Of a stretch of DNA of 64,000 nucleotides, positions 15,711-31,140 are shown piece by piece. Position 1 is the stretch's first letter, and the number at the start of each line of letters is the position of its first letter. Below the pieces are notes generated by a model. That model had not been told where the DNA came from. It saw only the letters and a program-made list of their open reading frames with translations, and searched no databases. The position numbers and the translations under genes are program-made. Origin of the DNA: Pleurocapsa sp. PCC 7319 (GTDB lineage Bacteria; Cyanobacteriota; Cyanobacteriia; Cyanobacteriales; Xenococcaceae). The DNA lies in the NCBI RefSeq assembly GCF_000332195.1, contig NZ_KB235922.1, forward strand, positions 4,251,322 through 4,315,321, written 5' to 3'.

Positions 15711-17084
15711 TTATAAGTTGGTAGTTAATCTGGCTTTTCTCAGCAAAAATTGTAGTACAGTCTCTTCTTTAGTAATGATGTCGGTTTGTCCTTCCATGCC
15801 CAATTGAACGTTACATTGCTTATCCTCTTTACCTAAAGCAAGATTATTTGGCTCAATGGTAACTTCATAGAATGCAATACCAGTCTGCTGACTAGGAGTA
15901 TTATTTGTCGAGGGATTATTACCTGTTTCAGGAAAAGCCGCATCAGGAGCAATAGCTGTAACTTTTCCTTCGAGAGTGCCGTAATCGGAGTAGGGGCAAG
16001 CTGATACTCGCATTTTGGCTATTTGACCTTTTTCCAGCTTACCTATATCTTTGGCGGGAACTGAAGCTTGGACAACTAGTTTGGTGTTACTTGGAGCTAT
16101 TTGGGCGATTTCTTCCCCAGGGCGTACGGTCTGACCTGGATTACGCAGATTTAGCTTGGAAATGATACCGTCAGTTGTAGCAGTAATCTTAGTTTGTTTG
16201 AGATCGGTTTTAACTTGTTTTAGTTGCAGGGCATCTTGCTCTAACTGCTTATTTATTTCAATTTTTTGTTGGATCAGAGCTTCTCTTTCTTTCTTTAAAT
16301 TAGCCAGACTAGTCTTACCGTTGGCTTGGGCTTCGGCAATTCGGGAAGTGGCGATCGCTACTTCGGCATCACTGGGATTAAGAGCAGTTTGAGCGCGAGT
16401 TAAGGTAGCCTTGGCGGCAGCAACTGCCTGCTGTTGTTGGTGCACTGCTAGTTGTACTTCTTGTAATTGATCGCGAGAAATAGCTCCTTCTTTAGCTGCA
16501 CTACGATAACGATTCAGTTTGGCTTGGGCGGCACTTAAAGCTGCTTCGGTTGCTTTTAAGTTTGATTCATTTTCTTGAACTTCGGCTTGAGTTGTAATTT
16601 GTTTATCTTGATATTCTCTTTGAATGCGATCGCTTTCGGCCATTGCAGCGTCTACATTCCCCTTAATGCGATCGCTTTCGGCTACAATTTGGCTATCGAG
16701 GGCTTTAATTTGGGCGTTAATTTGGACTAACTGTAATCTTAACTGTTGAATACTGTCCTGTAATTGACTTTTTTGGTTTTGTAACTGAGAATCATCGACA
16801 GTGGCAATCACATCACCTCGTTTAACAATTTGATTACCTTTAACTGCAATCTGCATTATTTGTCCTTCAGTAGCAGCTTGAGCTAGACGTAATTCGCCAT
16901 CAGGACGAACAAGTGCTTGAGTTTTAACTGTTTCTCTATATTTAGTCACGGAAGCAACCGGAAACGCCAGAGCCACAACAGCAACGATAAATAGTCCCCC
17001 AAACCTGGTCCAACGACTAATAGGAGGTAAAAATTCGTCTTGTTGAATTGAGGGTAGAAATTTAGGATTAGAGTTAGTGTGCAT
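15711..17084 (-). CDS. HlyD-family periplasmic adaptor of a C39 exporter
   Basis: The 457-residue membrane-fusion protein has one N-terminal membrane helix (about residues 30-48). A biotinyl-lipoyl-like half, a long alternating Gln/Ala-rich coiled coil (about 85-300) and a second lipoyl/beta-barrel region follow. In type I export these proteins bridge the ABC transporter and the outer-membrane channel. It lies 206 bp downstream of the C39 ABC exporter on the same strand and should form a complex with it. No outer-membrane TolC gene is visible in the window. Confidence 0.9.
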   Translation of the reverse strand: MHTNSNPKFLPSIQQDEFLPPISRWTRFGGLFIVAVVALAFPVASVTKYRETVKTQALVRPDGELRLAQAATEGQIMQIAVKGNQIVKRGDVIATVDDSQLQNQKSQLQDSIQQLRLQLVQINAQIKALDSQIVAESDRIKGNVDAAMAESDRIQREYQDKQITTQAEVQENESNLKATEAALSAAQAKLNRYRSAAKEGAISRDQLQEVQLAVHQQQQAVAAAKATLTRAQTALNPSDAEVAIATSRIAEAQANGKTSLANLKKEREALIQQKIEINKQLEQDALQLKQVKTDLKQTKITATTDGIISKLNLRNPGQTVRPGEEIAQIAPSNTKLVVQASVPAKDIGKLEKGQIAKMRVSACPYSDYGTLEGKVTAIAPDAAFPETGNNPSTNNTPSQQTGIAFYEVTIEPNNLALGKEDKQCNVQLGMEGQTDIITKEETVLQFLLRKARLTTNL

Positions 17085-17290: not shown

Positions 17291-19471
17291 TTATTTGATC
17301 ACGCGTAAGCTTCTCTGAGAAGGAATAAAGCCGTCGAGAAAATCTAAATGATCGCCAGCTAAAGAGTGTAATTCTTCGGGAGTACCTTGAACTTTTAACT
17401 TTCCTTTCTCTAGCATGACAATCCAATCAGCACGGGCAATTACACGAGGGCGATGACTAATCAGAATAGTAGTATTGCCCTGACGAAAGGATAATAATTG
17501 TTCTAAAACTTTGGCTTCACTAACTGGATCGAGTGCGCCAGTAGATTCATCTAAAATTAGGATCGGTGGATCGGTGACAATAGCTCTAGCGATCGCCAGT
17601 CGTTGTTTTTGACCACCAGAGAGATTGGCTCCGAATTCTCCTAACACGGTTTGATATTTATCGGGTAATTCACTGATAAATTCGTCCGCACCAGCGATTT
17701 GACAGGCTTTAACAATTTGCTCAAAAGTGACGTGAGGATAACTGAAGCGGAAGTTATCAACAATGGAGCGACTCCAAAAGTGGGGTTCTTGAGGTACAAG
17801 TACAACTTGTTGACGCAAACATTCCAAAGAAAGGTCTTGTTGATTATAAATACCGTAACGAATATTGCCTGATTGAACTGAATACAAACCAGCAATTAAC
17901 TTGGCAAGAGTGCTTTTTCCACAACCAGATTGACCGATTAAAGCTACACTTTGACCACCAGGAATAGTTAAGGAAAAGTCGTCGAGTAAATCTACTCTTC
18001 CTGCATGATGAAAGTTCAAACGATCGCAGATAATATCAGTATCTGAAGGGAGTTCTGCCCAAGGTTTTTTAAAGTCATTTTCATCTTCGGGGGTAGCATC
18101 AATTACTTCGGTTAAGCGTTGAATAACTACTTGTGCGGTAATAAATTCATCCACTAATCCAATGGCACTACCTAAAAATCCCAGAAAATTACCACTCATG
18201 CCGTTATAGGCGAGCAATTGACCAATACTAAGCTCGCCCTGAATAACCAGATAACTACCTAACCAGAGTAAACCAATGGAAGTGAAAGTAGATAACAGCT
18301 TGGTAATTGTGCCACTGTAAAGACCGAGTTTCATAGTACTCCAACCCAGATTAGCTAAGCGACCATAATTACCTTGGTACTCTTGCCAAGCTTGGGGTGT
18401 AGCTTGAGTAGTTTTGAGAATCTGTACCCCACGAAAGGTTTCCACCAGAAAGCCCTGGTTTTCCGTGCCTAAAACAATTTGATTACGAGTTTTTTGTCGT
18501 AAGGCAGGTAAAAATAATAAATTAACCAGAGTAACTATAATAAAAGCGGCAATGGAACCTAAACTAAGCTGCCAACTATAAGACAACATCACTGCCAAGG
18601 ACACCACGGCGATAAAAAATTGACTAGGTAAACCCAAAACAATTTGGGATACTAATCGATTAATTGCACCGACATCAGCGATTCGACTGACTACTTCCCC
18701 ACTGCGTCGACCTTCAAAATAAGATAGAGGTAAATGGAGCAGTTTTCGTCCATATTCTAAAATTAATCCTAATTGCAATTTTTGCCCAAAGTGACCAATA
18801 AGATGAGATTGAACTAAACTCACCACACTTCTAAAGACGTTCATCAGGATAACAGCGATCGCCACTGTCGCTAGAAGTTGAGTATCTCCTCTAACCAAAA
18901 CATCATCTGTCAGCAATTGCATCATGATTGGCGATGCTAAAGAAAGCAAGCCGACAGCAAAATTAATCGCGATCGCCTGGGCTAAAATCCCGCGATAGGG
19001 TAATACTCGTTTGAGATAACGTCCAAAACCTCCTATCTTGTCATCTTCCTGTTCATAAAAGCGACTATCATCGGGAGTCAATAACAACATGACTCCATTA
19101 CCCCAACCAACAGTTAATTCTCGTCGGGTTAGATGGCGAATACCAACGCCAGGGTCAGCAACAAGGTATTTTTTCCCTTTCTTACCGTATAAAACCACCC
19201 AATGATAGCCTTTCCAATGAATTACCGCTGGTAAAGGAACTTCAGATAAGCGATCCATAATCTCGGAGGTGGCTTTAACTTGACGAGCATTAAAACCAAA
19301 AGCTTCTGCACCTCGACTCAAACCCAATAGGGTAGTGCCTCTAGCACCCGTGCCAACTGCTTCTCTGATTCGACTGATAGCAAAGGTACGTCCATAATAT
19401 TTAGCCACGGTCGCAAGGCATGCAGCCCCGCAGTCTTCCTCACTATGTTGTAATACAATTGGGTGTTTCAT
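17291..19471 (-). CDS. C39-peptidase ABC exporter (PCAT type)
   Basis: The 726-residue protein combines three parts. An N-terminal C39 peptidase (about residues 1-135) has catalytic Cys14 in EEDCGAAC, a His near residue 92 and an Asp in VADPG. A six-helix ABC membrane domain (about 155-440) follows. The C-terminal ATPase has Walker A GQSGCGKST, signature LSGGQKQR and Walker B ILILDES. Such transporters cut leader peptides after Gly-Gly and export the rest. The eight double-glycine genes that follow at 20-30 kb are the obvious substrates. A version of their upstream control block lies just before this gene. Confidence 0.94.
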   Translation of the reverse strand: MKHPIVLQHSEEDCGAACLATVAKYYGRTFAISRIREAVGTGARGTTLLGLSRGAEAFGFNARQVKATSEIMDRLSEVPLPAVIHWKGYHWVVLYGKKGKKYLVADPGVGIRHLTRRELTVGWGNGVMLLLTPDDSRFYEQEDDKIGGFGRYLKRVLPYRGILAQAIAINFAVGLLSLASPIMMQLLTDDVLVRGDTQLLATVAIAVILMNVFRSVVSLVQSHLIGHFGQKLQLGLILEYGRKLLHLPLSYFEGRRSGEVVSRIADVGAINRLVSQIVLGLPSQFFIAVVSLAVMLSYSWQLSLGSIAAFIIVTLVNLLFLPALRQKTRNQIVLGTENQGFLVETFRGVQILKTTQATPQAWQEYQGNYGRLANLGWSTMKLGLYSGTITKLLSTFTSIGLLWLGSYLVIQGELSIGQLLAYNGMSGNFLGFLGSAIGLVDEFITAQVVIQRLTEVIDATPEDENDFKKPWAELPSDTDIICDRLNFHHAGRVDLLDDFSLTIPGGQSVALIGQSGCGKSTLAKLIAGLYSVQSGNIRYGIYNQQDLSLECLRQQVVLVPQEPHFWSRSIVDNFRFSYPHVTFEQIVKACQIAGADEFISELPDKYQTVLGEFGANLSGGQKQRLAIARAIVTDPPILILDESTGALDPVSEAKVLEQLLSFRQGNTTILISHRPRVIARADWIVMLEKGKLKVQGTPEELHSLAGDHLDFLDGFIPSQRSLRVIK

Positions 19472-19526: not shown

Positions 19527-19640
19527 GTCTTCAAAAAAATCGTCTGAAAAACGTCTTTAGTTGCACCTATACTTAATGGATATATTCTGTTCTGACTTTA
19601 GTCGACTAACTAAGTAAATTTCTCTATAACTAAAGTCGTA
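19527..19640 (-). promoter_or_regulatory. Control block before the exporter gene
   Basis: It contains TCTGAAAAACGTCTT (about 70 bp before the start codon), preceded on the plus strand by another GTCTTC-type half. It also holds GACTTTAGTC and AACTAAAGTC. The same elements, in the same order, stand before all eight intact double-glycine genes. This copy is more diverged and sits closer to the start. Confidence 0.65.
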
Positions 19641-19979: not shown

Positions 19980-20066
19980 TTGATTAAATTTGCTTATTAA
20001 TGCAAATTTTTGATTTTTAGCATGTGTAAACTTCAAAAATTCGAATTTTTGTCGAGAAATATACCT

Positions 20067-20462
20067 CTATGGTAGGATCTCACCGCTCAAAGTATAAGAA
20101 GAAAACTCATTGCTAAAAATCGAGCTAAAGGTTCCAGTTCCTGAGTAAGTTCTTGTTTCGATAGGATCAGGAGCGCTAAAACCATCGTCATCATCTAAAA
20201 TCTGAATGTCGAATGTGTCACCGACTGCAAACGATTGATCAATTGAAAAAATGTTATCTGCTGGATTGTTAGATATAATTATATCCCTAAAAGAAGCCAC
20301 CGTGTTGCCATTTAGACGAATAATAGGATCGTCACCACCGATATCGTCCGATCCTGCTCGGTTAAGTCGCAGAGTGTCTAATCTCAACGTTGCTCCACCT
20401 TCAATAGCTGCTGCTTGTTCTGGAGTTAATTTAGTAAATAGTGCTTGATTTTGTTTAGTCAT
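20067..20462 (-). CDS. Double-glycine-leader beta-rich secreted protein, MTKQNQ class
   Basis: 131 residues. Residues 1-23 are a leader (MTKQNQALFTKLTPEQAAAIEGG) whose Gly-Gly at 22-23 matches C39 peptidase sites. The remaining 108 residues are acidic, lack cysteine and alternate short hydrophobic strands, with a DDDD run near residue 90. The pattern (xxxxGDDPxIRxNG ... DDDD ... YxLxGEIL) recalls C2-like beta-sandwich calcium-binding domains, but this is a guess. The start is supported by AGGA about 11 bp upstream. The closest relative is the gene at 21576-21965. Probable substrate of the exporter at 17291-19471. Confidence 0.8.
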   Translation of the reverse strand: MTKQNQALFTKLTPEQAAAIEGGATLRLDTLRLNRAGSDDIGGDDPIIRLNGNTVASFRDIIISNNPADNIFSIDQSFAVGDTFDIQILDDDDGFSAPDPIETRTYSGTGTFSSIFSNEFSSYTLSGEILP

Positions 20463-20597
20463 TGTTCATTTTTTCCTAATAATTTGAGTTAGTTATAGTT
20501 ATTTACCTGGCAACATTAATAGTGAATATTAGTAATTAATTGATAAATCTTGCTCTGGTTTTAACTGTCTTAATAATAAAAAATTGCTAAAATAAAA

Positions 20598-20714
20598 ACA
20601 TCTGAAAAACGTCTTGGATTTAGTATCAACGAAATAGATATTTAGCTTCTAACTTTCGCTTAATAGTTGAATATTTTCCCAAGACTAAAGTTAGAGTCAC
20701 AATTATTGTGCGTG
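20598..20714 (-). promoter_or_regulatory. Conserved control block, copy before 20067-20462 gene
   Basis: In plus-strand order: ACATCTGAAAAACGTCTT, TAACTTTCGCTTA and AGACTAAAGTTAGAGTC, then ATTATTGTGCGTG. The TAACTTT and AAAGTTA halves form an inverted repeat about 25 bp apart. The block starts 136 bp before the ATG. Confidence 0.75.
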
Positions 20715-20742
20715 TAAATCACTCCTCAATGTCAAAACAAAA

Positions 20743-20775
20743 AGCGATCGCTGTGGTACTGGTAACAGCGATCGC
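20743..20775 (-). terminator. HIP1-armed terminator after the 20815-21174 gene
   Basis: Stem of GCGATCGCTGT/ACAGCGATCGC, loop GGTACTGGTA region, then TTTTTGTTTTG on the minus strand. Confidence 0.75.
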
Positions 20776-20814
20776 CTTAATTTAATTAGCTTGTTAGTTC
20801 AAAATTTGGTTCAA

Positions 20815-21174
20815 CTAGCTTATGGCTTGTAAAGAAGAGATTTCCATTGCTAAATCGCCAGCACTTGTAGTCGTAAATGGTCCTACTTCAATGTAGTCTC
20901 CCTCAAAATTGGGATCTTCGTAGAATCTCCAAGTCTGACCATTTTCAACAGTAATAGATTGGGTCAAGTTGTCAAAATCGAAATCACTTAAATCTTCTAT
21001 TTTTTCATTAGTTTTAAGGCTAACTCCTCCTCGACCTGGTTCAGAAAATAAAGTCACATCGGCAAGACCATTAACTGTACTTCCTCCAGAATAGGCTTCA
21101 GCAGCTTCAGAAGTAATATCTTGAAATAATTCGATGTTATGGAGAGATTTGGTCTGATTGTTGATTTTATGCAT
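20815..21174 (-). CDS. Double-glycine-leader beta/gamma-crystallin-like protein
   Basis: 119 residues: a leader ending in Gly30-Gly31 (…ITSEAAEAYSGG), then a single beta/gamma-crystallin-like domain. Crystallin marks are the two Greek-key halves (VTLFSEPGRGG and WRFYEDPNFEGDYIEV) and a DNLTQS sequence at 68-73, close to the (N/D)(N/D)xx(S/T)S calcium site. The second half has a degenerate site (MEISS). There is no cysteine. The protein is identical to the product of 23153-23512. AGGAGCAAAAC precedes the start. Probable exporter substrate secreted outside the cell. Confidence 0.85.
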   Translation of the reverse strand: MHKINNQTKSLHNIELFQDITSEAAEAYSGGSTVNGLADVTLFSEPGRGGVSLKTNEKIEDLSDFDFDNLTQSITVENGQTWRFYEDPNFEGDYIEVGPFTTTSAGDLAMEISSLQAIS

Positions 21175-21309
21175 TGTTTTGCTCCTAATAATTTTGTAGT
21201 TGATTCTAGTTATTAACTCGGCAAAATTTAGAGAAATAACTATTTGTTTACTGATAAATTTTGCTTTGTTTTTTAACTATCTTGATCATAAAAAAAAGCT
21301 AGAAGAAAA

Positions 21310-21428
21310 ACATCTGAAAAAAGTCTCAAATCTCCCCTCAACTAAATGCATATTAAGCCTCTAACTTTCGCTTATAAGTTGGAAATATTTCCCTAAGACT
21401 AAAGTCAGAGTCACAATTATTGTGCGTG
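21310..21428 (-). promoter_or_regulatory. Conserved control block, copy before 20815-21174 gene
   Basis: Starts with ACATCTGAAAAAAGTCT, 136 bp before the ATG, followed by CTAACTTTCGCTTA and AGACTAAAGTCAGAGTC. Confidence 0.75.
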
Positions 21429-21456
21429 TAAATCACTCCTCAATGTCAAAACAAAA

Positions 21457-21490
21457 AGCGATCGCTGTGGTACTGGTAACAGCGATCGCT
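21457..21490 (-). terminator. HIP1-armed terminator after the 21576-21965 gene
   Basis: AGCGATCGCTGT/ACAGCGATCGCT stem followed on the minus strand by TTTTTGTTTTG. Confidence 0.75.
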
Positions 21491-21575
21491 TTGATTGAAT
21501 TAGCTTGTTAAAGCAAATTGATGATTCTTAATTTTCTTAAGTCTTTAAATCGAAAATTTGCCGATAACCAAATCT

Positions 21576-21965
21576 TTATGCCAAAATTTCACCTTTTAAA
21601 ATATAGGCAGAAACATCATTCTGAAAGAGTTTATTTATTATCCCAGGTCCCGTGAAAGTATTAATTCCTATCAAGTCATCATTCCCATTCAAAAAATCGT
21701 CATCATCACTCATCTCGATTCTTACTGTACCTACGTTACCTAAATCAATCGAGTTATTAATTTCTAAAATGTCATTTGCATTTACGTCTTTTTCACTAAA
21801 CAGGGTACTACCATTGACTCTAACTAGAGGATCGTCGCCTGTAATCGTATCTGCTCCTGTTTGAATAACTTCCAAAGAGTATAATCTGACACGTAATCCA
21901 CCTTCAATAACTGCTGCTTGTTCTGGAGTTAATTTAGTAAATAGTGCTTGATTTTGTTTAGTCAT
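21576..21965 (-). CDS. Double-glycine-leader beta-rich secreted protein, MTKQNQ class
   Basis: 129 residues, a diverged paralogue of the 20067-20462 product. The 23-residue leader differs at one position (AAVIEGG for AAAIEGG). The mature part shares the GDDPxxRVNG segment, an acidic DDDD stretch near residue 93 and the C-terminal YxLKGEIL. The leader is far better conserved than the mature part. That is expected if one peptidase recognises it while the cargo diversifies. No cysteine; fold unassigned, perhaps C2-like. Confidence 0.8.
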   Translation of the reverse strand: MTKQNQALFTKLTPEQAAVIEGGLRVRLYSLEVIQTGADTITGDDPLVRVNGSTLFSEKDVNANDILEINNSIDLGNVGTVRIEMSDDDDFLNGNDDLIGINTFTGPGIINKLFQNDVSAYILKGEILA

Positions 21966-22100
21966 TGTTCATTTACTCCTAATAATTTGAGTTAGTTCTA
22001 GTTATTTACCTGACAAAATTAATAGTGACAATTAGTAATTAACTGATAAGTCTTGCTCTGGTTTTAACTGTCTTAATAATAAAAAATTGCTAAAATAAAA

Positions 22101-22217
22101 ACATCTGAAAAACGTCTTGGATTTAGTATCAACGAAATAGATATTTAGCTTCTAACTTTCGCTTAATAGTTGAATATTTTCCCAAGACTAAAGTTAGAGT
22201 CACAATTATTGTGCGTG
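22101..22217 (-). promoter_or_regulatory. Conserved control block, copy before 21576-21965 gene
   Basis: Practically identical to the block at 20598-20714, again 136 bp before the start codon. Confidence 0.75.
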
Positions 22218-22245
22218 TAAATCACTCCTCAATGTCAAAACAAAA

Positions 22246-22278
22246 AGCGATCGCTGTGGTACTGGTAACAGCGATCGC
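22246..22278 (-). terminator. HIP1-armed terminator after the 22412-22804 gene
   Basis: GCGATCGCTGT/ACAGCGATCGC stem with TTTTTG on the minus strand, about 130 bp past the stop codon. A second, weaker HIP1 pair follows at about 22301-22325. Confidence 0.65.
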
Positions 22279-22411
22279 CTTAATTGAATTGGAAAAGAGA
22301 GGTGATCGCTAGTGCGATCGCCTTAAAAGACAGTATGAAGAAATATGATTAACTTTTCTTGCTTCAAGAAACAGCTATTTTATTCTGTCTAAACCCTTTA
22401 TTTTTGCTCTA

Positions 22412-22804
22412 TTAAGCTATACGCTCAATAGAGGTAATCGCATCATCATTAGCACCAAGATTATAGCCTCCTGGTGCTAAAACACCTGTATCACCCTCTC
22501 CGACATTAGTATAGAACCGCCATGTACCCTCGTTAACTACGATTGATGAAACGGTATCGTTAAAAGTAGTTTCGTTACCATTGGAATCCAAACCAATATT
22601 AATCACCTCACCTATATCCGCACCACTTACACCCAATCTCTGTCCTGTTGCGTCAGGATCCTTGTATAACAATATTTCTCCTTCAGCAAGACTGTCAAAA
22701 GAAAAATTGGCACCACCACTATAATTAGCAGCAGTCTCAGGTGTAATATCTTGCACGAAGTTAATGTTATATAGTCGATTGGACTGATTGTTAATCTTAG
22801 ACAT
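22412..22804 (-). CDS. Double-glycine-leader beta/gamma-crystallin-like protein
   Basis: 130 residues with a leader ending at Gly30-Gly31 (ITPETAANYSGG). The mature part is a beta/gamma-crystallin-like domain with two good calcium signatures: NDTVSS at 82-87 and DDAITS at 120-125. It also has Greek-key strands around ILLYKDPDATGQRL and WRFYTN. No cysteine. The start has an AGGAG sequence upstream. It is a unique member of the array, not one of the duplicated pairs. Secretion by the C39 exporter is inferred. Confidence 0.85.
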   Translation of the reverse strand: MSKINNQSNRLYNINFVQDITPETAANYSGGANFSFDSLAEGEILLYKDPDATGQRLGVSGADIGEVINIGLDSNGNETTFNDTVSSIVVNEGTWRFYTNVGEGDTGVLAPGGYNLGANDDAITSIERIA

Positions 22805-22935
22805 TATTTTCTCCTAATAATTTGAGTTAGTTCTAGTTATTTACCTGGCAAAATTAATAGTGACAATTAGTAATTAACTGATAAATATTGCTCTGGTTTT
22901 AACTGTCTTAATAATAAAAAATTGCTAAAATAAAA

Positions 22936-23052
22936 ACATCTGAAAAACGTCTTGGATTTAGTATCAACGAAATAGATATTCAGCTTCTAACTTTCGCTTA
23001 ATAGTTGAATATTTTCCCAAGACTAAAGTTAGAGTCACAATTATTGTGCGTG
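22936..23052 (-). promoter_or_regulatory. Conserved control block, copy before 22412-22804 gene
   Basis: Nearly the same sequence as the block at 20598-20714, starting 132 bp before the ATG. Confidence 0.75.
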
Positions 23053-23080
23053 TAAATCATTCCTCAATGTCAAAACAAAA

Positions 23081-23113
23081 AGCGATCGCTGTGGTACTGG
23101 TAACAGCGATCGC
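23081..23113 (-). terminator. HIP1-armed terminator after the 23153-23512 gene
   Basis: AGCGATCGCTGT stem pairing with ACAGCGATCGC; T-rich tail on the minus strand. Confidence 0.75.
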
Positions 23114-23152
23114 CTTAATTTAATTAGCTTGTTAGTTCAAAATTTGGTTCAA

Positions 23153-23512
23153 CTAGCTTATGGCTTGTAAAGAAGAGATTTCCATTGCTAAATCGCCAGC
23201 ACTTGTAGTCGTAAATGGTCCTACCTCAATGTAGTCTCCCTCAAAATTGGGATCTTCGTAGAATCTCCAAGTCTGACCATTTTCAACAGTAATAGATTGG
23301 GTCAAGTTGTCAAAATCGAAATCACTTAAATCTTCTATTTTTTCATTAGTTTTAAGGCTAACTCCTCCTCGACCTGGTTCAGAAAATAAAGTCACATCGG
23401 CAAGACCATTAACTGTACTTCCTCCAGAATAGGCTTCAGCAGCTTCAGAAGTAATATCTTGAAATAATTCGATGTTATGGAGAGATTTGGTCTGATTGTT
23501 GATTTTATGCAT
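23153..23512 (-). CDS. Double-glycine-leader beta/gamma-crystallin-like protein (duplicate)
   Basis: 119 residues, identical in protein sequence to the product of 20815-21174; the DNA differs by only a few bases. The leader ends at Gly30-Gly31 and the mature part is a single crystallin-like domain with DNLTQS at 68-73. Upstream and downstream regions are also nearly identical to the other copy, so the whole unit (block, gene, terminator) was duplicated recently or homogenised by gene conversion. Confidence 0.85.
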   Translation of the reverse strand: MHKINNQTKSLHNIELFQDITSEAAEAYSGGSTVNGLADVTLFSEPGRGGVSLKTNEKIEDLSDFDFDNLTQSITVENGQTWRFYEDPNFEGDYIEVGPFTTTSAGDLAMEISSLQAIS

Positions 23513-23646
23513 TGTTTTGCTCCTAATAATTTTTTAGTTGATTCTAGTTATTAACTCGGCAAAATTTAGAGAAATAACTATTTGTTTACTGATAAATTTT
23601 GCTTTGTTTTTAACTATCTTGATAATAAAAAAAAGCTAGAAGAAAA

Positions 23647-23765
23647 ACATCTGAAAAAAGTCTCAAATCTCCCCTCAACTAAATGCATATTAAGCCTCTA
23701 ACTTTCGCTTATAAGTTGGAAATATTTCCCTAAGACTAAAGTCAGAGTCACAATTATTGTGCGTG
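23647..23765 (-). promoter_or_regulatory. Conserved control block, copy before 23153-23512 gene
   Basis: Nearly identical to the block at 21310-21428, starting 135 bp before the ATG. Confidence 0.75.
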
Positions 23766-23793
23766 TAAATCACTCCTCAATGTCAAAACAAAA

Positions 23794-23826
23794 AGCGATC
23801 GCTGTGGTACTGGTAACAGCGATCGC
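23794..23826 (-). terminator. HIP1-armed terminator after the crystallin gene fragment
   Basis: Same AGCGATCGCTGT/ACAGCGATCGC hairpin, now downstream of the truncated copy at 23866-24027. Confidence 0.7.
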
Positions 23827-23865
23827 CTTAATTTAATTAGCTTGTTAGTTCAAAATTTGGTTCAA

Positions 23866-24027
23866 TTAGTTTATGGCTTGTAAAGAAGAGATTTGCATTG
23901 CTAAATCGCCAGCACTTGTAGTCGTAAATGGTCCTACTTCAATGTAGTCTCCCTGAAAATCGGGATCTTCGTAGAATCTCCAAGTCTGACCATTTTCAAT
24001 AGTAATAGATTGGGTCAAGTTGTCAAA
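23866..24027 (-). pseudogene. 3' fragment of a crystallin-like cargo gene
   Basis: The last 50 or so codons match the 3' half of the genes at 20815 and 23153, with a few substitutions (DFQGDY, MQISS). Similarity stops abruptly at 24027. Leader, start codon and control block are missing, and an in-frame stop lies just upstream. The break is close to the start of the methyltransferase gene, suggesting an insertion or deletion joint here. Confidence 0.85.
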
Positions 24028-24092
24028 TTTGATCGCGAGTATAAAAGAATAGATATTCTAGTCTTAAATTGAACTAAGGGAGAAAAAACACG

Positions 24093-24830
24093 GTGGCAAA
24101 ACTATCTCACAATCAAAAGTCATTCAACTCTGATAACAAGTTATTCGATGAGCAGTGGATAACTTATCAGAAGCTTCTAGATAATAATTACATGGGACAT
24201 CAAGAAATTTATAGAATTGTACATCAGTTTTTAGGCGATCGCTACAATAAGCCTTTTAATCTGCTCGATCTTGGCTGTGGAGATGCTAGTTTCGCTGCTA
24301 AAGCTTTATTAAATACTCCCATAAATTTTTACTTGGGCATAGATTTGTCTGAATCTGCTTTGGAAATTGCCCGCGACAACATGGCTAAACTCCCAGGTAA
24401 AAAACGTTTCAGCCAAGGAAATCTGTTTGAATCAATTTTTCAATTAGAGCAATCTCAAGACAATAGCTTTGATGTCATCCTTGCTTCTTTTTCCCTCCAT
24501 CATCTAACTCTTTCACAAAAAGAACGTTTTATCGCTCAGCTTCCTCATCTTTTAAAAACTGATGGAATTTTTCTGCTGATAGATATAGTCAGACTTCCAG
24601 AGGAAAACAGGGAGGAATATATTAAACGTTATTTAAATAATGTCCGTCAAGATTGGACTTTACTGACTACTCAAGAATTTTTGAGAATAGAAAAGCATAT
24701 AAAATCCAGCGATTTTCCTGAAACCCAAGAAACCTTATACTCTTTCGCTAGAAAATACGGCTTTGCTCGTATCGATCGACTTTATCAAGATCCGTTGGAG
24801 ACAACTCAATGTTTATGTTTTTATCGATAA
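24093..24830 (+). CDS. Class I SAM-dependent methyltransferase
   Basis: 245 residues with the Rossmann motif LLDLGCGDASFA near residue 57, a GIDLSESAL motif II and FDVILASFSLHHL near residue 130. The GTG start at 24093 is supported by AAGGGAG upstream. The acceptor is unknown. Standing inside the double-glycine array on the opposite strand, it could modify a product of the region, but nothing in the sequence shows this. It meets the acyl-CoA synthetase tail to tail. Confidence 0.85.
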   Translation: MAKLSHNQKSFNSDNKLFDEQWITYQKLLDNNYMGHQEIYRIVHQFLGDRYNKPFNLLDLGCGDASFAAKALLNTPINFYLGIDLSESALEIARDNMAKLPGKKRFSQGNLFESIFQLEQSQDNSFDVILASFSLHHLTLSQKERFIAQLPHLLKTDGIFLLIDIVRLPEENREEYIKRYLNNVRQDWTLLTTQEFLRIEKHIKSSDFPETQETLYSFARKYGFARIDRLYQDPLETTQCLCFYR

Positions 24831-24841
24831 TATTCTCGAAT

Positions 24842-26422
24842 TTATTCTTTTTCTCTCAGTAAATATTTTTGGACTTTACCAGTAGCCGTCTTAGGTAAAT
24901 CTCTAAATTCTACAGCTTTAGGACATTTGAACTGAGCTAAGTTTTGACGGCAAAAAGAGATGATTTCAGCTTCAGTAACTGGGGTATCTGGCTTAGGGGT
25001 AACAAAAGCTTTAGGTACTTCTCCCCTTATAGCATCAGGAATAGCAATCACTGCTACCTCTAGCACTGCGGAATGTTGATAAATTACTCGTTCAATTTCA
25101 ATAGTGGAGATATTAACCCCACTACTAATAATAATATCCTTAGCGCGATCGCGCAATTCAATATAACCGTCAGGATAAACAACTGCCAAATCACCACTAT
25201 GAAACCAACCACCACGAAAAGCAAATTCTGTAGCTTCGGGGTCATTAAAATAGCCTTTCATGACGTTATTACCCCGCATTACTACTTCTCCCATAGTTTC
25301 CCTATCGGCAGGTACATCTTGCATCTGTGAATCTACTACGCGCATTTCGGTGGCGTGGATATAGGGAACTCCTTGTCTAGCTTTGAGTAGAGCCTTTTCT
25401 GTACTTGGTAGATTATCCCAAGATTGTTGCCACTCACAGACGCTATGAGGACCATAGGTTTCGGTTAAACCATAGACATGGATAATCTCTACGCCTAATT
25501 CTTCGCTGGCTTGAATAATAGTGGGTGAAGGGGGTGCGCCTGCGGTGGCGACTCTCAAAGTCTGAGTAAGTTTTAGTTGCTTAATTGCAGGATCGTTAAC
25601 CAGCATAATCAAAATTGTCGGCGAACCACAAAAATGAGTAACTTTTTCCTGCATCAATAAAGAAATAACAGTTTTAGGATAAAACTTGCGGAGCAAAACC
25701 TGAGTTCCTCCCGCTGCCACCACCGCCCAAGTAAAACACCATCCATTACAATGAAACATGGGTAGCGTCCATAAATAAACACTGCGGTTGTCCATGCCCA
25801 CTGTTAATACTTCACCCAAAGCATTGAGATAAGCTCCACGATGAGTATACATCACTCCTTTGGGTTGACCGCTAGTCCCGCTAGTGTAGTTAATAGAAAT
25901 TAGCTCATTTTCGTCTGCTAATTTGAGTTCTACTGTTTCAGTTGTACCTGTAGCTAAGAAACTTTCATAGCCAGATGATAATTCAGAATTATCTGTAGAA
26001 CTATCGACAATCTCAATAATCTCCTCTACAGTTGTTAGCTGCTCTTTTACTTCTGTTATTAAATGAGTCAATTCCTTATCGACAAAGACAATACGCACTC
26101 CAGCATCATTAAGGATATAACAAATATCCTGAGCAGATAGTCGAATATTAATCGCCACTAAGACACCACCCGCAAGGGGAACACCAAAATGAGCTTCTGC
26201 CATCGGTGGTATGTTGGGACATAAAAAAGCTACGCGATCGCCTGATTGTAAACCCCATTTTTGTAAAGCACTAGCGAGTTGATTAACCCGTGCTGCAAAT
26301 TGGGCATAAGTCCAGCGTTGCTGACGATAAACTAGAGCATCTTTGTCAGGAAAAACTTGGGCAGTTCGGACTAAAAAACTTAGAGGAGTAAGATGGCTGT
26401 AATTAATTTGATTTGTAGACAT
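24842..26422 (-). CDS. Acyl-CoA synthetase / AMP-dependent ligase
   Basis: The 526-residue enzyme activates a carboxylic acid as an acyl-AMP and then a CoA thioester. The AMP-binding motif (YTSGTSGQPKG, near residue 178), the GLTETYGP motif (about 318), the SGD segment and the C-terminal PKTATGKVQK lysine motif are all present. It resembles medium/long-chain acyl-CoA ligases of the type that begins SPLSFLxRxA. Length is normal. Substrate chain length cannot be read from the sequence. Confidence 0.9.
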   Translation of the reverse strand: MSTNQINYSHLTPLSFLVRTAQVFPDKDALVYRQQRWTYAQFAARVNQLASALQKWGLQSGDRVAFLCPNIPPMAEAHFGVPLAGGVLVAINIRLSAQDICYILNDAGVRIVFVDKELTHLITEVKEQLTTVEEIIEIVDSSTDNSELSSGYESFLATGTTETVELKLADENELISINYTSGTSGQPKGVMYTHRGAYLNALGEVLTVGMDNRSVYLWTLPMFHCNGWCFTWAVVAAGGTQVLLRKFYPKTVISLLMQEKVTHFCGSPTILIMLVNDPAIKQLKLTQTLRVATAGAPPSPTIIQASEELGVEIIHVYGLTETYGPHSVCEWQQSWDNLPSTEKALLKARQGVPYIHATEMRVVDSQMQDVPADRETMGEVVMRGNNVMKGYFNDPEATEFAFRGGWFHSGDLAVVYPDGYIELRDRAKDIIISSGVNISTIEIERVIYQHSAVLEVAVIAIPDAIRGEVPKAFVTPKPDTPVTEAEIISFCRQNLAQFKCPKAVEFRDLPKTATGKVQKYLLREKE

Positions 26423-26481
26423 AAGCTTTATTGTTTTCTAATCTACTGTTTTTCTTTATCCTTTTGATGATTTCTAGCTTT

Positions 26482-26658
26482 CTAGCTGCCAGGAAACCTG
26501 CCAGGAATATAAATACTTTGACCTGGAAAAATTAGCTGGGGATTAATTCTAGGATTGGCTGCTACTAAAAGATCTACACTCACCCCATATTTTTGGGCAA
26601 TGAGCCATAAGGTTTCACCTGGTTGAACAACATGATACCTTCCGTTATTAGATGACAT
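26482..26658 (-). CDS. LysM miniprotein
   Basis: A 58-residue protein that is almost only one LysM domain: YHVVQPGETLWLIAQKYGV, then PRINPQLIFPGQSIYIP. LysM binds N-acetylglucosamine polymers such as peptidoglycan. The ATG at 26658 is chosen over an ATG at 26739 because AGGAG stands 8 bases upstream and the domain begins right after. No signal peptide is seen, so how it would reach the wall is unclear. Confidence 0.8.
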   Translation of the reverse strand: MSSNNGRYHVVQPGETLWLIAQKYGVSVDLLVAANPRINPQLIFPGQSIYIPGRFPGS

Positions 26659-26910
26659 TGTTTTTCTCCTTTGATGGTACGTAATTAAAATTGATAGTTT
26701 CTGTGCATGGGAGCTCGCTTTTAAAACCTGACTTGGCAAAAAACAAGAAAATTAGCAGGAAAACCTAATCGTAAGCCTATCCTCGTATGAAAAATAGTTA
26801 CAATGTTTCAATTTGAGGTCGCTACGAATGTTCGACCATCGCTGGTGCGCTCCGCGCAATCGCTGACTCGATTGAGCTAGACCACAAAATCCGTTAGAAC
26901 CAGGGATAGT

Positions 26911-26948
26911 TTAGATATATTTCCTGAAGACTTAAGTTGGGGTTCGAT
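26911..26948 (-). promoter_or_regulatory. Decayed half of the control block
   Basis: TAGATATATTTCCTGAAGACT, then TAAGTTGGGGTTCG, aligns loosely with the distal half of the conserved block (GATATTTTCCTAAGACTAAAGTTAGAGTC). The TCTGAAAA half is not found nearby and no cargo gene follows. Confidence 0.4.
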
Positions 26949-26985
26949 GTATGGTGATGAAATTATTCCTCAATATCAGACAAAA

Positions 26986-27018
26986 AGGCGATCTCTACCA
27001 GATCACAAGCGATCGCCT
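26986..27018 (-). terminator. HIP1-armed terminator after the 27051-27431 gene
   Basis: AGGCGATC and GATCGCCT form a perfect 8 bp stem; TTTTTG follows on the minus strand. Confidence 0.7.
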
Positions 27019-27050
27019 TAATCAAATTTACTTGAATGAGGTGAGAAAGG

Positions 27051-27431
27051 CTATACGATTGGCTGTGCGAGACCGTCAGCCTCACTACGATAAGATGTGA
27101 TTTCATCGTTGAAACCTGTCGGAAGAAGATCTTGAATGAACTCTCCAGGTTCCAAAGTGAAACGTTCGCCGGTATAATCAGCACCTGTATAGAAAGCCCA
27201 TCGTACATCAGTGTCATTATAAACTGCGGAAATCTGATCGTTAAACAATACCCCGTCCTGTTGATCGCTTACACTTAGGTTTTGAGAACCATCAAATTTT
27301 GCTTGTCCAGCGAAATTGGCTCCAGTGGTAACAACAATACCACCAGAAATAGTGGCAGCAGTTTCTGGGGTAATATCTTGGAACAATTCGATACTGGAAA
27401 GAGAAAGAGACTGATGATTAATTTTAGACAT
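27051..27431 (-). CDS. Double-glycine-leader beta/gamma-crystallin-like protein
   Basis: 126 residues: leader MSKINHQ... ending at Gly30-Gly31 (ITPETAATISGG), then one crystallin-like domain. The second calcium signature is complete (NDEITS, 108-113); the first is NDQISA at 64-69. Greek-key aromatic positions are kept (WAFYTGADYTGERF). It is related to, but distinct from, the two identical proteins encoded at 28130 and 29411. The region upstream is nearly identical to theirs. No cysteine. Confidence 0.85.
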   Translation of the reverse strand: MSKINHQSLSLSSIELFQDITPETAATISGGIVVTTGANFAGQAKFDGSQNLSVSDQQDGVLFNDQISAVYNDTDVRWAFYTGADYTGERFTLEPGEFIQDLLPTGFNDEITSYRSEADGLAQPIV

Positions 27432-27566
27432 TGTTTTACTCCTAATGATTTTTGAGTTGATTCTAGTTATTTACTCGGCAAAATTCAGAGAAATAACTAT
27501 TTATTTACTAATTGATTTTGCTTTGTTTTTTAACTATCTTGATAATAAAAAATGGCCAGGAGAAAA

Positions 27567-27672
27567 ACATCTGAAAAAAGTCTCGAATCTTCCTTCAACT
27601 AAATGCATATTAAGCCTCTAACTTTCGCTTATTAATTGGAGATATTTTCCTAAGACTAAAGTTAGAGTCTCG
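27567..27672 (-). promoter_or_regulatory. Conserved control block, copy before 27051-27431 gene
   Basis: ACATCTGAAAAAAGTCTCG, CTAACTTTCGCTTA and AGACTAAAGTTAGAGTCTCG, 136 bp before the ATG. Further upstream (27720-27760) is the secondary motif GGGGAAAAC...TTTTTTCAGGTG. Confidence 0.75.
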
Positions 27673-27778
27673 TATATAAGCAAGTTGTAAGTTGAATATT
27701 TGTATTATGTCTTTCGTATGTTCTCCGCACCAGGGGAAAACTTCAGGTATTTTTTCAGGTGTGTGGTACGTCAATCAG

Positions 27779-27887
27779 GGTGAACGAAAAAAGGTGTGGA
27801 GTTAAATAATAGAGACGCTTTAAGTAACGAGTAAAAAGTAACGAGTAACGGCAATTAAAATTTTGGCCACCGTAAATTTCGCTCACC
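27779..27887. repeat. 109 bp MITE-like element, GGTGAACG family, copy 1
   Basis: Ends GGTGAACGAAA and TTTCGCTCACC are inverted repeats. The middle contains AAGTAACGAGTA repeats. Near-identical copies, all 109 bp, are at 28858-28966 and 59628-59736. The third array unit, at about 30130, lacks the element. Confidence 0.85.
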
Positions 27888-27918
27888 CCGCCAATCACTT
27901 TTCAATGAAACATAAAAA

Positions 27919-27952
27919 AGCGATCGCTGTTGAAATGGCAAGAGCGATCGCC
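27919..27952 (-). terminator. HIP1-armed terminator downstream of 28130-28510 gene
   Basis: Two GCGATCGC sites about 24 bp apart form the stem; TTTTTTATG follows on the minus strand. Confidence 0.6.
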
Positions 27953-28129
27953 TTAATTCGAGTTTAATATTAGTATTTTCGTAATACTTAGGAGAAATTC
28001 GGCCACATTTTGTAGTATTTTAATTCTGAGAGGCATTTTGTAGACAATTCACAAATTACCTCCTGGCTTCCCTTCATTCTTCTTCGTGAACATAAGATAA
28101 ATGAGGTGAAAAAGTTACATCAGTTGCTG

Positions 28130-28510
28130 TTAGGGAGCTAACGGTTCACTCCGATAAGATGTGATTGTATTGTCGTAGATTGTCCCGTGAAGATTGACAG
28201 CTTGCCCAGGTTGCACCATCAAACTCTGACCAGTATAATTAGCCTCTGCATAGAAAGCCCATGGTTGTTCGGTACCGTTATAAATTACGGAAGTCTGATC
28301 GTCAATTGACATCCCTTCCTGTTGATCGCTGACCGCTAAATCAGCAACACCATCACCCATTCTTACTTGCCCAGTGAGATTAGGTTCAGTGAAAAGGTAT
28401 ACTCCAGCAGGAAGAGCACCACCAGAATAGGTTTCAGCAGTTTCTGGGGTAATGTCTTGAATAAATTCGATACTGGAAAGAGATTGGGGCTGATTATTAA
28501 TTTTAGACAT
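28130..28510 (-). CDS. Double-glycine-leader beta/gamma-crystallin-like protein
   Basis: 126 residues: leader ending at Gly30-Gly31 (ITPETAETYSGG), then a crystallin-like domain with Greek-key marks VYLFTEPNLTGQ and WAFYAEANYTGQS. It has DDQTS at 70-74 and a full calcium signature DNTITS at 113-118. No cysteine. The protein is identical to the one at 29411-29791. The gene is part of a roughly 1.1 kb unit repeated in tandem. Predicted substrate of the C39 exporter. Confidence 0.86.
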   Translation of the reverse strand: MSKINNQPQSLSSIEFIQDITPETAETYSGGALPAGVYLFTEPNLTGQVRMGDGVADLAVSDQQEGMSIDDQTSVIYNGTEQPWAFYAEANYTGQSLMVQPGQAVNLHGTIYDNTITSYRSEPLAP

Positions 28511-28645
28511 TGTTTTACTCCTAATGATTTTTGAGTTGATTCTAGTTATTTACTCGGCAAAATTCAGAGAAATAACTATTTATTTACTAATTGATTTTGC
28601 TTTGTTTTTTAACTATCTTGATAATAAAAAATGGCCAGGAGAAAA

Positions 28646-28751
28646 ACATCTGAAAAAAGTCTCGAATCTTCCTTCAACTAAATGCATATTAAGCCTCTAA
28701 CTTTCGCTTATTAATTGGAGATATTTTCCTAAGACTAAAGTTAGAGTCTCG
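28646..28751 (-). promoter_or_regulatory. Conserved control block, copy before 28130-28510 gene
   Basis: The same sequence as at 27567-27672, again 136 bp before the ATG. Confidence 0.75.
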
Positions 28752-28857
28752 TATATAAGCAAGTTGTAAGTTGAATATTTGTATTATGTCTTTCGTATGT
28801 TCTTCGCACCAGGGGAAAACTTCAGGTATTTTTTCAGGTGTGTGGTACGTCAATCAG

Positions 28858-28966
28858 GGTGAACGAAAAAAGGTGTGGAGTTAAATAATAGAGACGCTTT
28901 AAGTAACGAGTAAAAAGTAACGAGTAACGGCAATTAAAATTTTGGCCACCGTAAATTTCGCTCACC
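28858..28966. repeat. 109 bp MITE-like element, GGTGAACG family, copy 2
   Basis: Same sequence and same position in the repeated unit as copy 1, so it was probably copied with the unit and not inserted independently. Confidence 0.85.
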
Positions 28967-28998
28967 CCGCCAATCGCTTTTCAATGAAACACAAAAAA

Positions 28999-29031
28999 GC
29001 GATCGCTGTTGAAATGGCAAGAGCGATCGCC
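28999..29031 (-). terminator. HIP1-armed hairpin, second array unit
   Basis: Same hairpin as at 27919-27952, now separated from the gene at 29411 by an inserted 202 bp repeat. Confidence 0.55.
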
Positions 29032-29095
29032 TTAATTCGAGTTTAATATTAGTATTTTCGTAATACTTAGGAGAAATTCGGCCACTTTTTGTAGT

Positions 29096-29297
29096 TATCA
29101 AAAAGCTTTAAGCTCTAAGCTTTAGGCTCTAAGCTCTTAAATTGACTACCTGCGTAGCAACTTTAAACTTGTAGCTTGTGGGTTCAAGACCCCTTCCAAA
29201 CGCAGTTTGGTGGTCTACAATCAGGCGAGGTCTAAAACCTTGTCTGATTGGCTTATAGCTTATGGCTTACAGCTTATAGCTGGGGCGAAGCCCTTTT
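29096..29297. repeat. 202 bp inserted element with AGCTTATAG arms
   Basis: Comparison with the uninterrupted unit at about 28010-28025 shows that 202 bp were inserted between GTAGT and ATTTTAATTC. The ends carry imperfect inverted arrays of AAGCTYTAAGCT and AGCTTATAGCT. No gene is present. Confidence 0.75.
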
Positions 29298-29410
29298 ATT
29301 TTAATTCTGAGAGGCATTTTGTAGACAATTCACAAATTACCTCCTGGCTTCCCTTCATTCTTCTTCGTGAACATAAGATAAATGAGGTGAAAAAGTTACA
29401 TCAGTTGCTG

Positions 29411-29791
29411 TTAGGGAGCTAACGGTTCACTCCGATAAGATGTGATTGTATTGTCGTAGATTGTCCCGTGAAGATTGACAGCTTGCCCAGGTTGCACCAT
29501 CAAACTCTGACCAGTATAATTAGCCTCTGCATAGAAAGCCCATGGTTGTTCGGTACCGTTATAAATTACGGAAGTCTGATCGTCAATTGACATCCCTTCC
29601 TGTTGATCGCTGACCGCTAAATCAGCAACACCATCACCCATTCTTACTTGCCCAGTGAGATTAGGTTCAGTGAAAAGGTATACTCCAGCAGGAAGAGCAC
29701 CACCAGAATAGGTTTCAGCAGTTTCTGGGGTAATGTCTTGAATAAATTCGATACTGGAAAGAGATTGGGGCTGATTATTAATTTTAGACAT
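29411..29791 (-). CDS. Double-glycine-leader beta/gamma-crystallin-like protein (duplicate)
   Basis: 126 residues, identical to the product of 28130-28510, with the same leader, Gly30-Gly31 site and DNTITS signature at 113-118. Flanking DNA is also the same for hundreds of bases. The downstream side is interrupted by the 202 bp element, and the upstream side lacks the 109 bp element. Both intact copies should make the same secreted protein, raising dosage. Confidence 0.86.
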   Translation of the reverse strand: MSKINNQPQSLSSIEFIQDITPETAETYSGGALPAGVYLFTEPNLTGQVRMGDGVADLAVSDQQEGMSIDDQTSVIYNGTEQPWAFYAEANYTGQSLMVQPGQAVNLHGTIYDNTITSYRSEPLAP

Positions 29792-29926
29792 TGTTTTACT
29801 CCTAATGATTTTTGAGTTGATTCTAGTTATTTACTCGGCAAAATTCAGAGAAATAACTATTTATTTACTAATTGATTTTGCTTTGTTTTTTAACTATCTT
29901 GATAATAAAAAACGGCCAGGAGAAAA

Positions 29927-30032
29927 ACATCTGAAAAAAGTCTCGAATCTTCCTTCAACTAAATGCATATTAAGCCTCTAACTTTCGCTTATTAATTGGA
30001 GATATTTTCCTAAGACTAAAGTTAGAGTCTCG
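29927..30032 (-). promoter_or_regulatory. Conserved control block, copy before 29411-29791 gene
   Basis: The same sequence as at 28646-28751, 136 bp before the ATG. Confidence 0.75.
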
Positions 30033-31021: not shown

Positions 31022-31140
31022 ACATCTGAAAAACGTCTTGTATTTAGCATCAACTAAATAGATATTAATCTTATAACTTTCGTTTATTAGTTGAAGATAT
31101 TTCCCTAAGACTAAAGTTAGAGTCACAATTATTGTGTGTG
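31022..31140 (-). promoter_or_regulatory. Orphan conserved control block
   Basis: The full block is present (ACATCTGAAAAACGTCTTG, ATAACTTTCGTTTATTAG, AGACTAAAGTTAGAGTC, ATTATTGTGTGTG), but no double-glycine gene starts at the expected distance (near 30886). A cargo gene was probably lost here. Confidence 0.7.

What the first reader, a model, noticed from the sequence alone, without database searches (positions are those of the whole stretch)
20067..29791. Array of double-glycine-leader beta/gamma-crystallin-like proteins
Six intact genes pair a C39-type leader (ending SGG at residues 30-31) with a crystallin-like domain. Calcium signatures (N/D)(N/D)xx(S/T)S are visible: DNTITS, NDEITS, NDTVSS, DDAITS. 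C39 exporters usually carry small bacteriocins. Folded, calcium-binding Greek-key domains as their cargo would be unusual and suggest a secreted calcium-dependent matrix or coat system. No protein has cysteine and no modifying enzymes are evident.
Basis: partly seen in the sequence, partly recalled or inferred. Interest (0 to 1): 0.9.

Follow-up and report, generated by a model that had tools for sequence, protein, structure and literature searches.

The report
Bacteriocin-type exporter carrying folded beta domains
A cyanobacterium keeps an array of small eye-lens-crystallin-like and C2-like proteins, each tagged with the kind of leader normally found on bacteriocins and placed beside a matching exporter, which points to a secreted coat or biofilm-matrix system built from folded domains.

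Summary
Six intact minus-strand genes (20815-29791) join a 31-residue leader ending SGG to a beta/gamma-crystallin domain. The array runs into a C39 exporter (17291-19471) and an HlyD adaptor (15711-17084).

The pairing is conserved. Of 12 GG-leader crystallin loci in 9 genomes, 9 lie within 5 kb of this exporter or an orthologue at least 78% identical, against 0 of 8 crystallin loci where no GG leader was seen. The exporter falls in a supported clade with that of an EbfG-like locus; EbfG proteins are published biofilm-matrix proteins, but the likeness rests on layout and a motif met strictly by 1 of 3 proteins. All eight cargo genes and the exporter share one upstream element.

Calcium is only partly supported: of 23 mature domains, 9 have two canonical sites, 6 one, 8 none.

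Most likely these are coat or matrix proteins exported unfolded. Rivals are protease inhibitors and crystallin-fold antimicrobials. Cleavage, secretion and calcium binding are unshown. New variant of a known kind.

The parts
20815..21174 (-). GG-leader crystallin, 119 aa, no canonical Ca signature; protein identical to 23153-23512
   Evidence: (PF00030 39.8 bits)
22412..22804 (-). GG-leader crystallin, 130 aa, two canonical Ca signatures (NDTVSS, DDAITS)
23153..23512 (-). GG-leader crystallin, second copy of the 20815 protein (1 nt different)
23872..24033 (-). truncated crystallin gene remnant (63-aa open frame, matches only the second part of the profile)
27051..27431 (-). GG-leader crystallin, 126 aa, one canonical signature (NDEITS)
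28130..28510 (-). GG-leader crystallin, 126 aa, one canonical signature (DNTITS); the protein modelled
29411..29791 (-). GG-leader crystallin, DNA-identical copy of 28130-28510
20067..20462 (-). second cargo family: leader ending IEGG, 131 aa, 50% identical to 21576
21576..21965 (-). second cargo family: leader ending IEGG plus C2-like domain, 129 aa; modelled
17291..19471 (-). C39-peptidase ABC exporter (PCAT), 726 aa, with Cys, His and Asp in the contexts of an active C39 domain
   Evidence: PF03412, PF00664, PF00005; residue context
15711..17084 (-). HlyD-type membrane fusion protein
14825..15466 (-). LuxR-type response regulator; relative (71%) near the array in L045
   Evidence: PF00072, PF00196
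31742..32989 (+). histidine kinase; relatives (59-76%) beside the arrays in L045, L046 and L051
   Evidence: PF07730, PF02518
20601..20691 (-). shared upstream element of 20067
21313..21405 (-). shared upstream element of 20815
22104..22194 (-). shared upstream element of 21576
22939..23029 (-). shared upstream element of 22412
23650..23742 (-). shared upstream element of 23153
27570..27662 (-). shared upstream element of 27051
28649..28741 (-). shared upstream element of 28130
29930..30022 (-). shared upstream element of 29411
31025..31117 (-). shared upstream element with no GG-leader gene behind it
19543..19636 (-). shared upstream element of the exporter gene

Best explanation
A regulated secretion locus for small cell-surface or biofilm-matrix proteins. 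Each cargo gene stands alone behind its own copy of the shared upstream element. The N-terminal leader is recognised by the C39 domain of a PteB-type exporter and cut after GG, and the unfolded chain passes through the exporter, HlyD and a TolC-type outer channel encoded elsewhere. The mature domain (88-108 residues in the window; crystallin or C2-like) folds outside, helped by calcium where the canonical sites are present, and stays on or between cells as coat or matrix. Shown: genes, leaders, folds by prediction, exporter linkage, shared element, exporter clade. Inferred: cleavage, export, folding outside, calcium binding, matrix role. My estimates: about 0.85 for export through this exporter, just under 0.5 for a coat or matrix role (lowered slightly on rechecking, because the EbfG motif in L118 is met strictly by 1 of 3 proteins and a small membrane protein recurs beside relatives of the exporter).
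For: Leader plus crystallin and leader plus C2-like domain. L052 carries the LFTEL...EGG leader on a crystallin, so leader and domain are separate modules. 9 of 12 GG-crystallin loci have the exporter (at least 78% identity) within 5 kb of a crystallin gene, against 0 of 8 crystallin loci with no GG leader seen. The exporter keeps C39 active-site residues. A 19-row exporter clade (support 100/100) holds the window's exporter and that of L118, beside which three GG proteins of 88-96 aa stand in a row, one with the EbfG motif exactly and two with L at the hydrophobic place. EbfG1-4 occur in the medium, PteB is implicated in their secretion and EbfG4 is on the surface and between cells (PMC9981879, passages). 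The shared element lies upstream of 8 of 8 cargo genes and the exporter: 10 in the window, 0 in 100 shuffles. TolC-type genes lie elsewhere in the genome.
Against: No experiment. Canonical calcium sites are absent in 8 of 23 domains and net charge ranges from -12 to +12. The EbfG motif is absent from all six distinct window cargo proteins. The exporter clade also has other cargo: an 83%-identical exporter in this genome sits near an unrelated GG protein, and five exporters of 77-80% sit beside another GG family. In G006 a GG protein with a hydrophobic, bacteriocin-like core lies between crystallin and exporter (L050:2926), and a hydrophobic 126-aa protein, which could be an immunity protein, recurs in L046, L049 and L050 (not in the window or L045). 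Two GG crystallins in G002 have no exporter nearby. The element was not seen upstream of one L045 crystallin, nor in L056, L101 (2 genes tested), L102, L104, nor of the window's kinase and regulator genes, and it occurs at 9 other places in the genome.
Confidence: 0.47

Rival explanations
1. The mature domains are secreted antimicrobials with a crystallin fold, that is large bacteriocins; some yeast and Streptomyces killer or antifungal proteins have this fold (recalled; one search did not test it).
For: C39 exporters and GG leaders are classic for bacteriocins, and cyanobacterial GG precursors of 28-164 aa are catalogued as putative bacteriocins (PMC3140520, abstract and passages). Arrays of diverging paralogues fit an arms race. 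A hydrophobic 126-aa protein without a Pfam match recurs between crystallin and exporter in L046, L049 and L050, and L050 has a bacteriocin-like GG protein there.
Against: That hydrophobic protein is not in the window, L045, L052 to L058 or L101 to L131 stretches searched. No cysteines in the window proteins. C2-like companions, and the clade with the EbfG-like locus, point elsewhere.
Confidence: 0.18
2. The mature domains are secreted protease inhibitors of the I36 type, guarding cell or sheath against foreign proteases; the array is a panel of variants.
For: Inhibitor_I36 (PF03995) exceeds its cut-off and beats the crystallin model for 27051, 28130, 29411 and L050; it also exceeds its cut-off for L047, L052, L046:10661, L101:8234 and L102.
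Against: The crystallin model scores higher for 20815, 22412, L045 (both), L047, L048, L052, L046:10661, L101:8234, L102 and L104:9614, and a match to either model shows only a shared fold. No cysteine in the window proteins, whereas the type inhibitor has disulfides (recalled). The C2-like companions have no link to inhibition.
Confidence: 0.15
3. Calcium-buffering or mineral-interacting proteins of the sheath: the domains hold calcium at the cell surface and affect carbonate deposition or calcium signalling.
For: Two cargo folds that often bind calcium; acidic mature crystallins in the window, net charge -9 to -12.
Against: Canonical sites absent in 8 of 23 domains, and all five relatives in L101 are basic.
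Confidence: 0.12
4. The GG leader is a relic and the proteins act in the cytoplasm.
For: Two orphan GG crystallins lie far from any such exporter (L047, L048).
Against: The leader is well conserved (mean column identity 71% over 12 leaders in A5; 41% over 14 whole proteins in A3, a set that is not quite the same) and stays with the exporter across two families.
Confidence: 0.05

Closest known systems
EbfG1-4 / PteB biofilm proteins of Synechococcus elongatus (PMC4997328, PMC9981879)
   Different: EbfG1-3 cores carry a short amyloid motif; it is absent from all six distinct window cargo, which are crystallin or C2-like.
Microbial beta/gamma-crystallins (M-crystallin, clostrillin, Protein S, spherulin 3a, nitrollin; hahellin)
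   Same: Fold and, in part, the paired calcium signatures. Hahellin is disordered without calcium, M-crystallin is folded either way (PMC8639718, passages).
   Different: A bacteriocin-type leader and a linked C39 exporter; searches listed no paper on this combination (listings only).
Cyanobacterial bacteriocin gene clusters with C39 exporter and HlyD (PMC3140520)
   Same: Layout: GG precursors, up to sixteen copies, with C39 ABC exporter and HlyD.
   Different: The passages seen class precursors mainly by leader family; the word 'folded' does not occur in the text. Its supplementary precursor tables were not seen, so some of these proteins could be listed there.
RTX-type type I secretion
   Same: Works alike in the proposed step: chain exported unfolded, folding outside helped by calcium (recalled; listing of PMC13224072 says calcium loading drives RTX folding).
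   Different: RTX uses an uncleaved C-terminal signal and a C39-like domain without activity (recalled); here an N-terminal leader and a C39 domain with active-site residues.

Membership tests
beta/gamma-crystallin superfamily | crystallin fold (two Greek keys) | tested here: met
beta/gamma-crystallin superfamily | paired signatures (N/D)(N/D)xx(S/T)S | tested here: inconclusive
   Two sites in 1, one in 3, none in 2 of the 6 window genes; 9, 6 and 8 of 23 in the family
C2 domain (cargo 21576, and 20067 by 50% identity) | C2 beta-sandwich fold | tested here: met
C2 domain (cargo 21576, and 20067 by 50% identity) | sequence match to the C2 family model | tested here: not met
   No C2 model among Pfam matches up to E 10 for 20067 and 21576 nor up to 0.1 for L053 and L054:7649; hence C2-like, not filed as a member
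Substrates of C39 (PCAT) exporters | N-terminal leader ending GG next to a C39 exporter | tested here: met
Substrates of C39 (PCAT) exporters | cleavage after GG and export | not testable with these tools
   needs protein work
PteB/EbfG biofilm system | exporter of the PteB clade | tested here: inconclusive
   19-row clade 100/100 with the L118 exporter; that L118 is an EbfG/PteB locus rests on layout and the published motif, met strictly by 1 of 3 and with L for F/I by 2 of 3 proteins, not on a named record; PteB itself was not compared
PteB/EbfG biofilm system | EbfG-type core motif A-(F/I)-N-I-(G/S) | tested here: not met
   0 of 6 distinct window cargo proteins, strict or widened
Bacteriocins / RiPPs | modifying enzymes or immunity gene in the cluster | tested here: inconclusive
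   In the window a general methyltransferase (24093-24830) and an AMP-binding enzyme (24842-26422) lie inside the array, link to the cargo unknown; a hydrophobic 126-aa protein recurs in L046, L049, L050, not in the window
Peptidase inhibitor family I36 | family model over cut-off | tested here: inconclusive
   Over cut-off for 27051, 28130, 29411, not for 20815 and 22412
Peptidase inhibitor family I36 | protease inhibition | not testable with these tools
   needs assay

The most novel reading that the evidence does not exclude
A branch of bacteriocin-type exporters has become a general secretion route for small folded beta domains. Interchangeable leaders carry crystallin, C2-like and other domains out unfolded, and calcium outside locks many of them into shape: an N-terminal-leader, C39 counterpart of calcium-driven RTX secretion, building a protein coat.
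Probability: 0.3. Interest if true: 0.8.

Novelty: new variant of a known kind. Interest (0 to 1): 0.62.

Why it matters
Double-glycine leaders are often taken to mark bacteriocin precursors. A conserved exporter branch whose cargo include folded beta domains means some such annotations may mislead, gives a set of bacterial crystallins a likely place of action, and offers a tractable way to test how a narrow ABC exporter handles proteins that must fold after export.

Tried and rejected
Rejected: all cargo are crystallins (21576 is C2-like). Rejected as a uniform property: canonical calcium sites. Considered: an exporter specific for crystallins; not so, because exporters of 77-83% identity also sit beside other GG proteins. 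Tried: an RNA-family explanation of the upstream element, no Rfam match at E up to 1 in 14000-33500. Tried: a regulon specific to the array; the element also lies at 9 other places in the genome. Tried: a terminator after each cassette; repeated GCGATCGC inverted repeats follow the genes (10 copies of the repeat holding them, pairing seen by eye), but the terminator scan found no excess (9 against a shuffled mean of 7.0) and the promoter scan none either (38 against 40.7), so terminators are not claimed. Tried: H-type lectin for the L056 cargo, suggested by eye; no Pfam or PDB sequence match, so left unnamed. Tried: Pfam for the 'IRNKT' cargo of L109 and L113, no match. Tried: PDB sequence match for the C2-like profile, nothing below E 0.18. 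A selection test on one close pair (L046:9901 against L051) was uninformative: 4 synonymous and 11 non-synonymous changes, 0.066 and 0.049 per site. Literature: searches listed no paper joining crystallin or C2 domains with a double-glycine leader; one search also matches 'crystalline' (PMC12836880 checked, 0 whole-word occurrences). In the exporter tree rows window_32 and L113_32 are second exporters in those stretches and bear the cargo label of the locus by name only, so the label-change counts printed there are not used; row L126 has a long branch.
Full report
WHERE. The window lies in a 7.39 Mb cyanobacterial genome of 10 contigs (G000:C7:4251322-4315321). A genome of the same genus, G003, has a contig of the same length (14295 bp) and the same proteins as record JAAUOU010000120.1, Hyellaceae cyanobacterium CSU_1_1. 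The species of the window was not identified.

OBSERVATION. Six intact minus-strand genes encode a 31-residue leader ending SGG followed by a domain of 88-99 residues. They make four distinct proteins: 20815 and 23153 encode one, 28130 and 29411 are DNA-identical. A truncated crystallin frame lies at 23872-24033. Two more genes in the array, 20067 and 21576, have a 23-residue leader ending IEGG and a mature part unlike the crystallins.

CALCIUM. Of 23 mature crystallin domains examined (identical copies counted; four truncated or stop-broken crystallin genes left out: the window remnant, G006:C184, G006:C132:3-137 and G012:122401), 9 have two canonical signatures, 6 one and 8 none; 24 in all against 0.64 expected from shuffled residues. 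The signature is real and inherited, but lost in many members, including 20815/23153 in the window and four of five genes in L101. Net charge of the mature parts runs from -12 to +12.

CONSERVATION. Alignment A1 matched 10 of 60 relatives and A3 11 of 386 genomes across the phylum, the window's own included in both; the matches in G005 and G114 are to the leader of proteins with another domain. Reading the loci one by one gives 12 GG-crystallin loci in 9 genomes (G000, G002 with three, G003, G006 with two, G012, G022, G118, G149, G319). In 9 of the 12 a crystallin gene lies within 5 kb of the exporter: the window itself and eight others at 78-90% identity, that of G022 seen over 211 residues up to the contig end. 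The three exceptions are one contig end (G006:C184, beside the kinase gene) and two orphans in G002. Eight crystallin loci in which no GG leader was seen have no such exporter in the stretch fetched, only 4 kb for L108. Limits: in L105, L107 and one of two hits in L057 the frame is cut so that the start is not seen, and L103 has a Sec-type signal by eye that contains a GG within its hydrophobic stretch. Fisher's test gives 0.0014, but loci of one genome are not independent. Hits in G423 and G278:C210 were not fetched and are not counted.

MODULAR LEADERS. The leader alone (12 rows), searched in 40 genomes at E up to 0.1, matched 8 of 40; in the window's genome 6 matches, all in this array. L052 joins the LFTEL...EGG leader to a crystallin; in the window, L053 and L054 that kind of leader carries the C2-like family. 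L056 joins the crystallin-type leader to an unnamed domain beside an 82%-identical exporter. Leader and domain are therefore separate modules.

EXPORTER. The exporter at 17291-19471 has C39, membrane and ATPase domains and keeps cysteine, histidine and aspartate in the expected contexts (residue roles recalled). An HlyD protein follows at 15711-17084. TolC-type genes lie elsewhere in the genome. In 292 genomes of the phylum, at most three candidates scored in each, 47 have a match at 1e-150, and identities show a gap between 77% and 68%. In a tree of 34 exporter rows a clade of 19 (100/100) contains each full-length exporter that I found beside GG crystallins or C2-like proteins, five beside the 'IRNKT' cargo (family f33), the 83% paralogue in this genome with other cargo, L117, whose cargo looks C2-like by eye only, L118, and L126 without a recognised cargo and on a long branch. 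Within it L118 groups with L126 and L117, not directly with the window's exporter. L118 has three GG proteins in a row; one has the motif A-(F/I)-N-I-(G/S) reported for EbfG1-3 exactly, two have L in place of F or I; chance was not computed. I take L118 as an EbfG/PteB-like locus; its genome has no name here and PteB itself was not compared. In the stretches outside the clade, the GG proteins seen nearby are short and look disordered or peptide-like by eye.

REGULATION. All eight cargo genes and the exporter have an element ACTTTAGT-N68..78-ACKTTTTTCAGA upstream, 10 copies in the window (one without a GG gene) and none in 100 shuffles. Parts of it recur upstream of exporters in L045, L046 and L050, of some crystallins there, and of the two orphans in G002; it was not seen for one L045 crystallin, for L056, L101 (2 genes), L102 or L104, nor for the window's kinase and regulator genes. 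A shortened pattern occurs 18 times in the genome, 9 of them here, with 0 reversed controls, and in 5 of 13 genomes of the genus; so it marks a wider regulon. Kinase relatives sit beside arrays in L045, L046 and L051, a regulator relative in L045.

NEIGHBOURS THAT COUNT AGAINST. A hydrophobic 126-aa protein without a Pfam match recurs at 87-92% identity in L046, L049 and L050 near the exporter, and could be an immunity protein; it is not in the window. In L050 a bacteriocin-like GG protein lies between crystallin and exporter. A DUF3455 protein recurs in L045 and L046.

INTERPRETATION. The EbfG system is the nearest with published function: EbfG secretion involves the C39 transporter PteB, and EbfG4 is seen on the surface and between cells (PMC4997328 and PMC9981879, passages). 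By that analogy the array most likely makes coat or matrix proteins. A narrow exporter should carry unfolded chains (recalled for type I exporters), and one bacterial crystallin, hahellin, is disordered without calcium while M-crystallin is folded either way (PMC8639718, passages). This makes calcium-assisted folding outside plausible for members with sites and not needed for the rest. Crystallin-fold antimicrobial and protease inhibitor remain open rivals.

NOVELTY. GG-leader proteins with C39 exporters in cyanobacteria are known (PMC3140520, PMC4997328). Folded crystallin and C2-like cargo on such leaders were not found by searches, which cover open-licence papers only; supplementary tables of PMC3140520 were not seen. 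I rate this a new variant of a known kind.

Noticed in passing
G000:C7 316023, 1025185, 1489815, 1499267, 2734811, 3082222, 3091801, 3130758, 5277319: The upstream element of the array recurs at nine other places in the genome, with varied genes behind it, among them a kinase-like protein (also in G004, G005 and G006); an undescribed regulon or promoter type (genes named by eye).
   Followed up: partly
window 38122-43862: A second C39 exporter system: exporter with a cyclic-nucleotide-binding domain, an HlyD protein fused to a receiver domain, and a rotamase; 32% identical to the first exporter.
   Followed up: partly
window 24093-26422: A methyltransferase and an AMP-binding enzyme gene split the array; the truncated crystallin (23872-24033) lies at this edge, as if an insertion broke it.
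   Followed up: partly
window 26482-26658: A 58-aa LysM protein without GG leader inside the array, with only a partial upstream motif.
   Followed up: partly
window 31450-31700: Minus strand reads like a decayed C-terminal part of an amylase-type protein, by eye only.
   Followed up: no
L109, L113, L114, L115, L116: Exporters of the same clade sit beside another GG cargo family with cores like 'IRNKTRYDI...YEF...DIDLY', no Pfam match for the two tested; possibly a further beta domain.
   Followed up: partly
L050:2926-3231: Next to a GG crystallin lies a GG protein with a longer leader and a hydrophobic core that looks like an ordinary bacteriocin.
   Followed up: no
L046:13137-13517, L049:13029-13409, L050:4385-4765: A hydrophobic 126-aa protein conserved between crystallin and exporter in three genomes, no Pfam match, absent from the window.
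   Followed up: partly
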